NCBI RefSeq assembly: GCF_018873765.1
Contig: NC_057916.1
Span: 24,971,001-25,035,000 of the forward strand
Reading direction: 5' to 3'
Source of the DNA: Telopea speciosissima
Lineage: Eukaryota; Streptophyta; Magnoliopsida; Proteales; Proteaceae
DNA length: 64,000 nt
Shown here piece by piece: positions 38,709 to 48,100 of this stretch. The notes below the pieces were generated by a model that had not been told where the DNA came from, made no database searches, and was given only the letters and a program-made list of their open reading frames with translations. Both the position numbers and the translations under genes were made by a program. Within the stretch, counting starts at the first letter, position 1, and every line of letters starts with the position of its first letter.

Positions 38709-39630
38709 TTAATTTCCTTGATCGTAAACGGTGAAAGCAGGATTTGAGATGGTGTAGCCACCATCTACGACGAGGTTATGCCCACTCACGTACTTGGACT
38801 CGTCACTCCCCAGATAGAGAACTGCCTCAGCCACGTCTTCCGTCTTCAGTACCACTCCTTTCAGGTTAGAATACACCTCCTCCGGCATGTTAGCCTTCTT
38901 AAGGAACTCCTTCGCCAAAGGCGTTATCACCAGGTACGGCGATACAGAGTTTACCCGAATACCGTACCGACCCAGATCCACGGCCGTGTTCTTTGTGAGC
39001 CCCAGTACGGCATGCTTGGAGGTCGTGTACGAGTGTGGTGCGAGACCGCCCATGACGGAGCAGACACTAGCAGTGTTAATAATACTGCCGCCACCAGCGG
39101 GGATCATGACACGTGCGGCGTGTTTTGTGCCCAAGAAGGCTCCTGTGACGTTGACGCTGAGAATCCTCTCGAAATCGGCTTTGTCATCGTGGGGGATGTT
39201 GGGTGTGTTTGAGCCAACGATGCCAGCGTTGTTGAACATGTTATGGAGTGCGCCGTACTTGGAGACTGTGGCGTCCACGGCATTCTGAACGTCCGATTCG
39301 ACGGTGACGTCACAGTGGACGAAGGATGCCGATGTGGGACCTATGTCTTGGCAGACGGAGTGGGCCAGCTCGTCTTTGATGTCCGCGATCATGACTTTGG
39401 CTCCGTGTTTGCAGAATAGTTCGGCGGTGCACTTTCCGATTCCGCCAGCTGCACCGGTGATCAGTGCCACCTTACCCTCCAGCCTATATTATATTACATT
39501 AATCAAACACATAAGAAAACAAAACCACCTACTTACCAATATATTTGTTAGAGGTTGAGAATCTGAGACAAGAAAGAGAGAGAGAGAAAAGGTACCTTCT
39601 TCCAATAGCAGAGAGAATTGAGGATCCCAT
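38709..39630 (-). CDS. SDR4: SDR of the second subtype
   Basis: Classical SDR, SDR110C-like (the family of secoisolariciresinol dehydrogenase, momilactone A synthase and zerumbone synthase). Exon 1 is 39596-39630 (35 nt, MGSSILSAIGR plus AG); exon 2 is 38709-39483; the 112-bp intron runs GTACCT to ATAG. Joined length is 269 residues. It has TGAAGGIG (21-28), ADIKD, NNAG, VNVTGA, a serine in INTASVCSV, and Tyr/Lys in YTTSK. The C-terminus GGYTISNPAF is typical. The N-terminal exon and the cofactor loop differ clearly from SDR1-3, so this is an older branch of the array. The frame is intact. The substrate is unknown. Confidence 0.92.
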
Positions 39631-43233: not shown

Positions 43234-43788
43234 ATGTTTGTTCTAAGGTATGTAGGCAACTTGGCAAAGTGACGATCTAGTTCGACCAACCTATCTACAT
43301 AGTCATCCATTAATTTGTATGGTGTCTACCATATCTTTACTCTCAATCTCTCTCTTGATTGTTATTTGAAAAAGAAAAAATCGAAGATTAAAAGAAGGGA
43401 AAATTACGTACCCTTCTCCTGTACTTTGCCCTAATTACACATTCCTCCCCTTGGTTTTTTCACCTTACATATGATTTCCCTGTAGTTTTCGAAAAATTAC
43501 TAATTCCTCTCCTGCCGTCTGTTAAGTGTTGACGTGACATAGTTAGATTTTTTTATAATGCCCAAACTAACCCTTGGTCATTGTGAGATGACCCTTTTAC
43601 CCTTCTTTTTCTTCTTCCTCCTCTTGCAACTTCGTCCACACCATGCTCCTGCAACCTCTGATTTTGACATTGAATCAAACTTTTCTGAACCCAACCATAC
43701 CCTTCTTCGTCTTCATGCTGCAATCCCACCTGCCCCCACCCACCTCATCATGGATAAATTCACATTTTTATTAACACTAGGAGATTGC

Positions 43789-44310
43789 TTAACTTACACC
43801 ATTTTCTGTGTTCGATAATGTGCAGTTCGTCACTGCAACTCCATTCACATCCTTTTCATCTAGATACTTGCCAAGGCTACCAACTCTGTTGTTTAAACAT
43901 AAAACCCATAATATTAATATTGAATTAGTTAAAGCCACACCTTTTCTGGGTTTCTCTTGAAAATTCGGGTTAGGGATCATGGGAAAAAAATACCTAATTT
44001 CATGTCCTGGTCTGCAAGTGACCTCATTAATGGTGGTATTGATTGGGCCTTGACCGATTGAGATGCAGTCATCCCTAGTTCCAATGATGTCTTTGGATAT
44101 TGCGACAGAATTGGATTTATTGATGTGGATGCCGTCTGTGTTTGGGCTAGTTTTAGGGGTGGTGATAGTGAGCTTGCGTGCCCTAAAGTTATGGCAAAAG
44201 TTAATCATAAAGTGGAAAGATTTGCTATTAAGTGAATGGAGACGCTGAACCAAACCCTCCCATTGTTTACATGATTGAACTTTTGTTCTGTAAAAATCAA
44301 TAATTTTCAA
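43789..44310 (-). pseudogene. Polygalacturonase (GH28) gene fragment
   Basis: The frame reads LTITTPKTSPNTDGIHINKS, then IGTRDDCISIGQG and TCRPGHEI, and after an intron-like break GSLGKYLDEKDVNGVAVTNC. This is the catalytic heart of plant pectin-degrading glycoside hydrolase 28. NTDG and the DD pair remain, but the usual GTGDDC is GTRDDC and the GHG motif is GHE, so catalysis should be lost. The break after PGHEI lies at a position where GH28 genes commonly have an intron, with GTATTT and CAACAG borders, so the capture was of genomic DNA, not of an mRNA copy. N- and C-terminal parts of the enzyme are missing. It lies entirely within the inverted repeats of the MULE-like element. Confidence 0.8.
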
Positions 44311-44704
44311 GGGTAAACTAAAACGGCTTGAACAAAAAATGAAGAATGTTTAACAAGAAAGTACAGATCTTGGTTCCCTAATCCCAATTGACCGGTCGGG
44401 TGCAGGAGACTTTTGGTCTTCAGATTTACCGGATTTCATGCCTACAGTGGCTATAAACAGAACCATGGAGGGCTGGGTTTTGAACACCATTAATGGGTGT
44501 TTTGAATATTTGAAACCGTTTTTTAATTTTTCAAGGTTCCTCATTTCGTTTGAACGGTGAAGGGATTTCAGGCTTATTCTAGCTTATTGGAAAAGCCGTC
44601 GGCATCGATTTAAGTTCATTTTGAAACCCGAAAGGGTTTCTGTTTTGCGGTGGCTTGAGGAAACAGGGGTTGCAAGAGGAGGATAAGGAAGAAGAAGAAG
44701 GGTA

Positions 44705-44745
44705 AATGGGTGGCGGTGGCGGTGGCGGTGGCGGTGGAGGAGGAA
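44705..44745. repeat. GGCGGT microsatellite
   Basis: About six units of GGTGGC, giving a polyproline run on the minus strand. Lies inside the MULE-like element. Confidence 0.85.
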
Positions 44746-45176
44746 AGAAATGGGTGTTTAAGATTGAAGAAGATGAAAAGGGTATCATGGTAATTTTACT
44801 TGCGGTGTTTTAGAACAATAGTAATATTGTTTTTTCAAACCATTAATTAACAGCAGCCAACACCGTCAGCGATAATAAGGGGTCAAAATTTAAGATGGAA
44901 ATACTAAGGGAAGGAATGTGTAATTAGAGCAACATCCAGGGGAGGGGTATGTAATTTTTCCTTAAAAAAAGAAAGCTTGATTTACCAACACAGAATTAAG
45001 AATGAGGTTCATACTTGTTGATGGCATGATCATGATTAGGAATGATCGGAATAGCCTTTGGATTTGCCTGATCCTATAGGTGTCAGCAACATTTTATTCA
45101 TCCTTGTTAACACCATTAATATGTCGGGTTCTTATTTCACCAATCTGGCCACACTGATTTCCCTTCAAATATATTT

Positions 45177-48100
45177 TTACTCCTTTCGTTGATCGTAAAT
45201 GGTGAAAGCAGTATTTGAGCTGGAGAAGCCACCATCTACGACGAGGTTATGCCCACTCACATACTTGGACTCGTCACTCCCTAGATAGAGAGCTGCATCA
45301 GCCACATCTTCCGGTTTCAGCTCCACTCCTTTGAGGTTAGAATACACCTCTTCCGGCAAGTCAGCCGCCTTAAGGAGTCCCTTCGACATGGGCGTTGGCA
45401 CCACGTACGGAGACACTGAGTTTACCCGAATTCCGAATCGTCCTAGATCCACGGCCGTGTTCTTGGTGAGCCCCTGTAGCGCATGCTTCGAGGCCGTGTA
45501 CGAGTGGGGTGCGACAGCGCCCCTGATGGAGCAGATACTAGCAGTGTTGATAATGCTGCCGCAACGGGCAGGGATCATAACACGTGCGGCGTGCTTTGTG
45601 CCCAAGAAGGCTCCTGTGACATTGACACTAAAAATCCTGTCGAACTCAGCCTTATCGTCGTGGAGGATATTGGGTGTGGGTGTGCTCATGATGCCAGCGT
45701 TGTTAAACATGATATGGAGCCCGCCGTACTTGGAGACTGTGGCGTCCACGGCATTCTGGACGTCGGATTCGTCGGTGACGTCACAGTGGACGAAGGATGC
45801 CGATATGGGGCCTATGTCTTGGCAGACGGAGTGGGCCAGTTCGTCGTTGATATCTGCGATCATCACTTTAGCGCCGTGCCTGCAGAATAGTTCGGCGGTG
45901 CACTTTCCGATTCCGCCTGCACCACCGGTGATCAGTGCCACCTTACCCTCCAGCCTGTTATATCAACCAAACGTATCAACTCTTAATTAAATAGGAACCA
46001 AACCAATATAGCTGTGTCAAAATGGTCCGACCAGCCCGAACCCGCCCTGAGCCCCAATAAAGGCTTGAGCTGAGATTTTCCACCCATAGGGTATGCATGG
46101 ACTGGGATTTTGAAGCTCGAGGCCGGGTCGGGCTAGGCCTGGGCTAAGGCATTAGGCTAAGCCCGGCCTTATTTACTATATGTATTTGAAATTTTATAAA
46201 AAATATACTACCAACTCCATCGATTCATCATCAAATACTATATAATTTATGGGAAGTAGTTTTCTGTCCGGGATTGTGGCCTACATAAACACTCCCATGT
46301 ATCTATCTCTCTCCTCCTTAAAACAAGAGGGTATAGATGTCTTTTCATATCTGGAGCAAAGAGAAAAAGAGATAGACTCATGGGAGTGCTGGCATAGGCC
46401 ACACTCCTGGACAGAGTTCTTTTTTCTATAATTTATACTATTAACACCTATATATTTTTAAGGAGAGGGTTCTCTACATTTACTTAGTGCAAGTTCAGTG
46501 CATAAGGAAACCAAACACATTTGGAATCTAACAAATGGAGAAGGGATATTTATGACATATCACCCCTCACATGCATGAACAGTGATATGTGAGGAGGTGT
46601 GTAATTTCATTTTTAAGCTGATGTTTTACAAAACTTTTTTCTCCATCTTTTTAGTTCACCCACATACTCATATAGTTTTTAATCCACAAAGGCATAACTA
46701 CATTAAACACACTGTATTTTTAAATTCAACAATACATCAAACCCAGGTCAATCAGGGTCAACTCAGCCCAGTCCCGCCCAATTAAGGTCAATCAGGGTTA
46801 GACTGGGTTGGGCTGAGCCTGACAGAGTTGGGCTTAGACTGATATATTCAAACCCAACCTTGGATTAGGCTGGGGCTGGGCTTGGGCTGAGTTAAGAGAT
46901 CTTAAGGTTGGTTTGTGGTTTTAAAAACCCATCCCATTGATGACACCCGTTCTCCACTACTCTTTGCTCTTTCTGTCTAGAATCTAGGCAAAGGTCGGCC
47001 AGGTAGGATATTGGCCTAAAGGCTGGTACTAGGGATGGATCGGGAAGATTGGGCCCAACCAACATTTGTTAGAGGTGAGAATCTGAGACAACTCTCGGGA
47101 TCTCCTCATGTCACAGTGCTTGTGTTACAACAAGTCCGAAAAGAAATCTGGGTGGGTGATTCCCATCCCGTAAAGCCTTTATCATATTGGGCGAGAGACA
47201 AGGTTAGGTTTTGAAACGAGGATGATCAAAGTGTCTTCTATCCAATGGTTTATTGTATTATATGAGCAGAGACCTTGTGCAGATCTGCTACCCACATGGG
47301 GACGGGTGGGGACAGATCTGAACCTTGCATGGGGTGTGAGATCCACATCCCATGGAGGGGTCAAATCTGTCCCTATCTATCCCCAGTGGGTAGCTGATCA
47401 GGATTCAGACTTGTTATGGTGGCATAATAATATGGGAAAAAATCCCATTCAAATCAATGTTTATGTAGTCTGTATGCACTCTCATCAGCCTTGCGCTGGT
47501 GCAGGGGCTACACAACTGGTTATCGTACTCTTACATTAATAATATTTGGGCTGCACCTCTTGCCTCTTGGTGTGATAGTGGCTGCTAGTCTTCTCCTGGC
47601 TACCATCGTAGTGGCCGATGGATTTTGGATAAAAATGACATTAAAAAAAAGTAGTAGAGCAGGGGCCATGTGTGCATGGCAACCAATGAGAGTGTGCGTG
47701 CTTGCATCTTAGGGGCAGGATTTTCGTCTTTCATGGGGATAGGGTGGTCATTTTGCCATCACCCCCCACTATGTCTGGACGTGACCTGCAACCCCGCTCC
47801 CCAAAAAAAAAGAGAATATTTTCTCCTAAAAACTTATAATAATTTCTTAGATGAGAGATAGGTACATTTTCACACGATAAACTAGAGAATGACACCAGCA
47901 GAGGCATGGATGGAGCATCACACAAGAGGGGCAGGGGGTCATTTGAAGGGGGAGGTGAGAGAGATAGACACTGCAAGCACTAACACATGATACACAGGCG
48001 ATGTACCCAGCCTTTTTCCCTTATATTTTCATTTGGAGCATGATATAGTTCTGAGTTTAAAGCTCCACTAATAATACTATAAAAAATTACATTTCACTGC

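What the first reader, a model, noticed from the sequence alone, without database searches (positions are those of the whole stretch)
43397..44961. Candidate Pack-MULE that captured a polygalacturonase gene segment
A 1.56-kb unit with inverted ends of about 70 bp and 9-bp flanking repeats (one mismatch) encloses a GH28 fragment that keeps an intron-like gap. No transposase is present. Gene-fragment capture by Mutator-like elements is established in plants; this particular unit lies between two SDR genes and I know of no description of it. The GH28 motifs are altered, so an enzyme is unlikely, but transcripts or small RNAs against a parental polygalacturonase are possible.
Basis: partly seen in the sequence, partly recalled or inferred. 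Interest (0 to 1): 0.72.

Follow-up and report, generated by a model that had tools for sequence, protein, structure and literature searches.

The report
Second-hand Pack-MULE carrying polygalacturonase fragment
This is a small plant jumping gene that carries a dead piece of a pectin-cutting enzyme gene, and scars at the joins indicate that it got the piece from another jumping gene rather than straight from the enzyme gene.

Summary
Window 43397-44961 is a non-autonomous Mutator-like element (MULE): 74-bp terminal inverted repeats (TIRs), 9-bp flanking repeats (8 of 9 match), no transposase domain found, and on the minus strand a 513-bp GH28 piece (end of intron 1, exon 2, intron 2, start of exon 3). 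It is a Pack-MULE.

It is not a private capture. In its own 823-Mb genome I found 14 copies of the piece in MULE context: 8 of family-1 build (window included) and 6 in a second family with different TIRs. At least four loci, one of them a third-family element, carry a scrap of it. The nearest gene, C7:57163103-57164407, matches at 82%. A 6-kb relative with the same ends encodes MuDR-type transposase domains.

Beside the piece, the window element and the five family-2 elements whose join was read keep 16 nt (one mismatch in one) that are native to a family-1 sub-group: a GH28-free relative (L086) has them in place. Family-2 fragments nest inside family-1 diversity (AU p = 0.012). So one capture was handed on between MULE families, probably by template switching. 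The fragment shows no coding constraint. Transcripts, small RNAs and related species could not be tested.

The parts
43388..43396 (.). left 9-bp target-site duplication TTAAAAGAA
   Evidence: 8 of 9 identical to 44962-44970
43397..43470 (+). left TIR, 74 bp, family 1
   Evidence: 81% identical to the right TIR; 86-88% to TIRs of L012, L034 and L085
43397..43773 (+). family-1 left arm (element positions 1-377), shared with many GH28-free copies
   Evidence: 86-90% identity to genome copies; the native arm continues differently after 377 in the loci looked at
43779..43794 (+). 16-nt scar AGGAGATTGCTTAACT, native to a family-1 sub-group, absent from the gene
   Evidence: present in L011, in five family-2 elements (one with a mismatch) and, in its native setting, in GH28-free L086
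43795..44307 (-). captured GH28 piece: part of exon 3 (43795-43885), intron 2 (43886-43993), exon 2 (43994-44287), end of intron 1 (44288-44307)
   Evidence: PF00295 E = 2e-30; 82% over 521 aligned nt to C7:57163467-57163978; borders read off the alignment
44308..44668 (.). block X, origin unknown, carried beside the GH28 piece in family 1; part of it occurs in L055, L057 and L058
   Evidence: no Pfam family over its cut-off
44669..44711 (-). 43-nt likely remnant of the donor's family-1 left arm, inverted (purine-rich)
   Evidence: 86% to element positions 195-234 inverted; in L010, L011 and L053 this sequence runs on into the inverted left arm
44709..44961 (+). family-1 right arm (element positions 1313-1565)
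   Evidence: 82-85% to the family-1 copies aligned over this arm in the same orientation
44888..44961 (-). right TIR, 74 bp
44962..44970 (.). right 9-bp target-site duplication TTAAAAAAA

Best explanation
The unit is a dead-cargo Pack-MULE. Shown: it has the ends and duplications of a Mutator-like family that also has a 6-kb relative encoding MuDR-type transposase domains, and it carries a genomic (intron-bearing) GH28 piece whose nearest relative is the gene at C7:57163103-57164407. Inferred route: an element of the L010/L011 type was broken and repaired by copying; the polymerase slipped back within its own left part at AGGAGA, then switched at a few shared bases into the gene, took about 513 bp and came out in or next to block X. 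That cargo was then copied from MULE to MULE: with X into the family-1 backbone that gave the window element and its 2.3-kb cousins, without X into a second MULE family, and as a scrap fused to X into a third. Each new carrier was then moved by transposase supplied in trans. The cargo does not encode a working enzyme and drifts neutrally.
For: Ends and target-site duplications. Transposase-bearing relative L085, 5.98 kb, TIRs 92-96% to L012 and perfect 9-bp duplication. Introns kept. Single capture: the family-1 and family-2 copies in the junction alignment that reach the joins share one border to within a base at the X side, and the same 13-16 nt that are not in the gene at the other side. 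Route: GH28-free L086 carries those nucleotides inside a collinear family-1 arm, and L011 keeps a further 50 or so nt of it. Tree of 15 rows: L010/L011 outside, window + 2.3-kb class + family 2 together 97/96, family 2 together 98/96; holding the family-1 rows as one clade is rejected, p = 0.012, or 0.006 without the partial L054 row. No coding constraint: variable sites among the TE copies at codon positions 1/2/3 = 31/24/26 of 96 each, chi-square p = 0.62; most family-2 copies carry a stop just before the DD motif.
Against: Window and family 2 also share the outer edge of the 16-nt scar. 82% identity to the C7 gene is low, so the true donor may be a lost relative. L010, which should be close to the first carrier, has no target-site duplication (2 of 9). 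The transposase frames of L085 are split over several ORFs and may be dead. The 43-nt right-hand remnant is purine-rich. TIR similarity between families beyond the first 12 nt is at or slightly above the shuffled maximum, so the families may be distant kin.
Confidence: 0.83

Rival explanations
1. Families 1 and 2 each took the piece independently from the same gene.
For: Both are MULEs, and repeated capture of one kind of sequence by unrelated elements has been proposed for ULP domains in grapevine (PMC2528002, passages seen). Both families stop at the same place on the X side, which a fragile or short-homology site in the gene could explain.
Against: Both share 13-16 nt that the gene lacks and that a GH28-free family-1 relative has. 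They share derived changes from the gene (TRDD for TGDD among them) and are 93-95% alike (five elements) while each is about 83-85% to the gene. Family 2 nests inside family 1.
Confidence: 0.06
2. The route ran the other way: family 2 captured first and family 1 copied from it.
For: Family 2's borders coincide with the ends of the GH28 piece, as a first capture would give.
Against: The 16-nt scar is native to a family-1 sub-group. All family-1 copies read across that join have X, family 2 does not. On the gene-rooted tree L010/L011 branch outside family 2.
Confidence: 0.08
3. A degenerate resident GH28 pseudogene with chance inverted repeats, no transposon.
For: None found.
Against: 34 exact TIR 17-mers against 1 in the reversed control; 177 TIR 33-mers with up to 3 mismatches against 0; target-site duplications; copies elsewhere with the same inside and different flanks.
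Confidence: 0.01
4. The element works as a source of small RNAs or antisense RNA that acts on the GH28 gene.
For: Maize Pack-MULEs and other carriers are reported as siRNA reservoirs acting on donors (review PMC13317346, passages seen). Each of the 14 TE rows shares 6 to 20 exact 21-mers with the C7 gene, longest exact run 23-29 nt.
Against: The window copy shares only 6 such 21-mers, longest run 23 nt. No expression data are held here.
Confidence: 0.08

Closest known systems
Pack-MULEs (rice and other plants; MULEs with captured gene fragments)
   Same: TIRs, 9-bp duplications, no transposase, intron-bearing fragment of a host gene, several copies, transposase-bearing relative
   Different: The cargo was second-hand: it passed through an earlier carrier and sits in more than one TIR family
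ULP domains in several MULE, Jittery-like and CACTA families of grapevine (PMC2528002, passages seen)
   Same: One cellular sequence found in unrelated element families
   Different: There the authors favoured repeated independent capture or frequent loss; here join scars and a tree point to transfer from element to element
Pack-TIRs of animals made by gap filling or fork stalling with template switching (PMC8277862, passages seen)
   Same: Short shared bases at the joins, copying into an element, later spread of copies
   Different: Animal elements; source described there is external sequence, not a chain of elements
PM-ZIBP Pack-MULE family of tomato (PMC3310237, passages seen)
   Same: A small Pack-MULE family with one captured gene fragment and a tree that picks the oldest carrier
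   Different: One TIR type with tandem duplication; no second TIR family is described in the passages seen

Membership tests
Mutator-like element (MULE) | long TIRs | tested here: met
   74 bp, 81% identical
Mutator-like element (MULE) | 9-bp target-site duplication | tested here: met
   8 of 9 in the window; 12 of 16 elements with 8-9 of 9 against 2 of 240 mismatched pairings
Mutator-like element (MULE) | same ends on an element with MuDR/MULE transposase | tested here: met
   L085: DBD_Tnp_Mut 2.2e-16, MULE 5e-09, SWIM 2e-08 in split frames; TIRs 80-88% to the window's and 92-96% to L012's
Mutator-like element (MULE) | mobilised by that transposase | not testable with these tools
   needs excision or insertion assays
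Pack-MULE | no transposase inside | tested here: met
   no transposase family in the five frames scanned
Pack-MULE | contains a fragment of a host gene found intact elsewhere | tested here: met
   C7:57163103-57164407, four GH28 blocks without stops, 82% over 521 nt; start and end of that gene were not modelled
Pack-MULE | fragment taken from genomic DNA (introns kept) | tested here: met
   intron 2 and the end of intron 1 align
Pack-MULE | captured by this element directly from the gene | tested here: not met
   join scar native to another family-1 sub-group; not a defining feature of the class as generally used (recalled)
GH28 enzyme | complete catalytic domain with NTD, GDD, GHG and RIK motifs | tested here: not met
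   about positions 102-188 of 324 plus part of exon 3; TRDD and PGHE replace TGDD and PGHG, and the RIK region is missing; motif names recalled
Helitron or other class | no TIR and no target-site duplication | tested here: not met
   TIRs and 9-bp duplications present

The most novel reading that the evidence does not exclude
Captured gene pieces in this genome behave as trade goods among transposon families: once inside one MULE, the GH28 piece (with or without block X) was copied into at least two more MULE families with different ends, so capture from the gene is rare and element-to-element copying is what spreads cargo. If general, many published 'repeated captures' of one gene would be single captures followed by hand-overs, readable from scars like the 16 nt here.
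Probability: 0.7. Interest if true: 0.5.

Novelty: new member of a known kind. Interest (0 to 1): 0.36.

Why it matters
How Pack-MULEs obtain and spread gene pieces is still argued. Here one locus set gives a dated order: a GH28-free relative, a first carrier with a readable double template switch (L086, then L011), second carriers with a scar of the first, and a different family with the same scar. It offers a simple test, reading native sequence left at the joins, that can tell repeated capture from transfer between elements in any plant genome.

Tried and rejected
Origin of block X: no Pfam family over its cut-off in three X frames and no gene-like source among the hits that I looked at (L053, L055, L057, L058); left open. 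Family-3 inside frames: no Pfam family over cut-off. Small-RNA idea: only a shared 21-mer count could be made. Chance origin of the ends: rejected. Independent capture by family 2: rejected. A reading that the 13-nt repeat in L011 marks a separate insertion was dropped after L086 showed the sequence between the repeats to be native. In one search the L010 row was taken too long through a stray hit; the corrected row gave the same tree. Literature: Pack-MULE with polygalacturonase gave 2 papers, neither on such an element by title and abstract start; Mutator-like + polygalacturonase + transposable element + captured gave 2, both on Fusarium; searches aimed at one fragment in different TIR families or at template switching listed no report of this route among the rows shown (25 of 36, 2 of 2, 20 of 546, 15 of 19, 12 of 47), judged by title and start of abstract apart from the five papers of which I saw passages. 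Subscription papers are not held, so this is not proof of absence.

Full report
What is there. Window 43397-44961 is bounded by inverted repeats (76 nt, 82%; 74-nt TIRs 81% identical) and by 9-mers that match at 8 of 9 positions. On the minus strand it holds a GH28 piece (PF00295, E = 2e-30). Element position 1 (q1) is window 43397. From left to right: a family-1 left arm (q1-377), a few unassigned bases, a 16-nt scar (43779-43794), the GH28 piece (43795-44307), block X (44308-44668), a 43-nt remnant (44669-44711), and a family-1 right arm (44709-44961). The unit lies 215 bp from the end of an SDR gene (45177-45962, minus) and between it and a second SDR gene (38709-39488, minus).

The family. 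The TIR 17-mer is found exactly at 34 places (1 in the reversed control). A 33-mer TIR taken from a relative is found at 177 places with up to 3 mismatches (0 in the control). Pairing a hand-typed part of the listed places gave 35 facing pairs: 24 of 1.6-2.4 kb and 6 of 5.6-6.2 kb among them. One of those six, L085 (C6:68861040-68867050), has a perfect 9-bp duplication and frames with DBD_Tnp_Mut, MULE and SWIM domains; the frames are split, so I do not claim it is active. Target-site duplications of 8-9 of 9 are present in 12 of the 16 elements whose ends I placed; L010, L013, L018 and L086 miss. Mismatched pairings reach that in 2 of 240.

Other carriers. The whole-element search scored 40 of 897 candidates, so counts are lower bounds. 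Family-1 carriers: the window; L012, L013, L014 and C7:5054534-5058318 (about 2.3 kb, the last 3.8 kb with an insertion), which are the GH28-free 1.39-kb backbone seen in L034 with the cargo set into it; L010 and L011, where the cargo lies the other way round relative to the arms; and C7:28563645-28564381 (L053/L054), a copy of the L010/L011 arrangement for which no TIRs were read. That makes 8. Family-2 carriers: L015, L016, L018, L019, L020 and a partial copy, L052; that makes 6. Their TIRs are 86-92% alike among those compared, and 60-66% to family 1. Without the first 12 nt, window against family 2 falls to 55%, inside the shuffled range (maximum 57%); L012 against family 2 is 59% against a shuffled maximum of 57%. 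Family 3: L058 has other TIRs (84% identical to each other) and a perfect 9-bp duplication, and holds two short GH28 scraps beside X. L057 has an 87-bp scrap (84%) fused to X at GTGG; its second TIR was not found. Two C10 loci show the same scrap and were not read. Three more loci align along L058 through that part and were not read either.

The gene. The nearest non-transposon match is C7:57163103-57164407, with four GH28 blocks and no stops in them and the NTDG, TGDD, GPGHG and RIK motifs in the translation (motif names recalled). BLAST gives 82% over 521 nt; over gap-free columns the window copy is 83.6%. It could be the donor or a relative of a lost donor.

The joins. At the exon-3 end the gene reads ...ATCCTAACACC; the window, L010, L011 and five family-2 elements read ...GCTTAACT then [A/T]ACACC. 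L086, a GH28-free element with family-1-like ends (71-76% TIR identity), holds AGGAGATTGCTTAACT within an arm collinear with L010 and L011 at 77-78% over 300-360 nt, followed by about 50 nt that L011 also keeps, up to ACCAGGAGA. L011 goes from that second AGGAGA back to TTGCTTAACT and then into the gene. This is what two template switches would leave, one at AGGAGA and one at about two shared bases. L010 lacks the 50 nt, which recombination between the two repeats would explain. So the 16 nt belong to the transposon, and their presence in the window element and in five of five family-2 elements read at that join (one with a mismatch, L019) is a scar of the earlier carrier. At the other end of the cargo, X in L010, L011 and L053 runs on into the inverted family-1 left arm, while the window and the 2.3-kb class keep about 43 nt of that arm and then change to their own right arm. 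That stretch is purine-rich, so I give it less weight.

The tree. With the C7 gene as the outer row, 15 rows of the GH28 piece place L010/L011 outside a group of window + 2.3-kb class + family 2 (97/96); family 2 is one group (98/96) and the 2.3-kb class another (100/100). Holding the seven or eight family-1 rows together is rejected (p = 0.006 without L054, 0.012 with it). This agrees with the scars: family 1 gave, family 2 took. Against it stands that family 2's other border coincides with the GH28/X border within one base. I tried to read a GH28-free family-2 element to see whether a shared TTTTC explains this and could not.

Function. Among TE copies, variable sites in exon 2 fall 31/24/26 on codon positions 1/2/3 (96 sites each, p = 0.62), and fixed differences from the gene 7/8/9. 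The copies carry stops, frame breaks and changed motifs. The window copy has one long open frame through the intron (186 codons), but it covers only about a third of the GH28 profile. I read the cargo as dead weight. A regulatory effect is possible but not shown: 6 to 20 exact 21-mers are shared with the gene per copy (6 in the window copy).

Place among known things. By ends, duplications, missing transposase and gene piece it is a Pack-MULE. Gap filling with template switching at short shared bases is the proposed route for animal Pack-TIRs (PMC8277862, passages). One cellular domain in unrelated plant element families is known for ULP in grapevine and was read as repeated capture or frequent loss (PMC2528002, passages). 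What I have not found described, in the searches listed under Tried and rejected, is a captured piece handed from one MULE family to another with the donor's own sequence left as a scar. The finding as given is therefore ordinary in kind; the relay is the part worth following.

Noticed in passing
L055 779-2074 (C5:20178359-20181594): An element with yet other ends (AGAAAATTACACTCCCCTCCCC...) carries about 235 nt of block X at 88% without the GH28 piece, so X may be older cargo than GH28.
   Followed up: partly
C7:20113650-20120389 of the same genome: A 6.2-kb pair of family-1 TIRs ends about 170 bp from a family-2 left arm; side-by-side carriers of this sort could help copying between families.
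   Followed up: no
L015 2021-2875 (C3): The right part of this family-2 element is present twice in tandem, 429 nt at 98.8% identity, apparently a recent duplication of the GH28-side arm.
   Followed up: no
window 38709-39488 and 45177-45962: Two SDR genes of the same type, same strand, about 5.7 kb apart, look like a tandem pair; the element sits between them, 215 bp from the second.
   Followed up: partly
L058 1677-2285 (C5): A roughly 600-nt block shared by several family-3 copies has no Pfam family in the frames scanned and may be another captured piece.
   Followed up: partly
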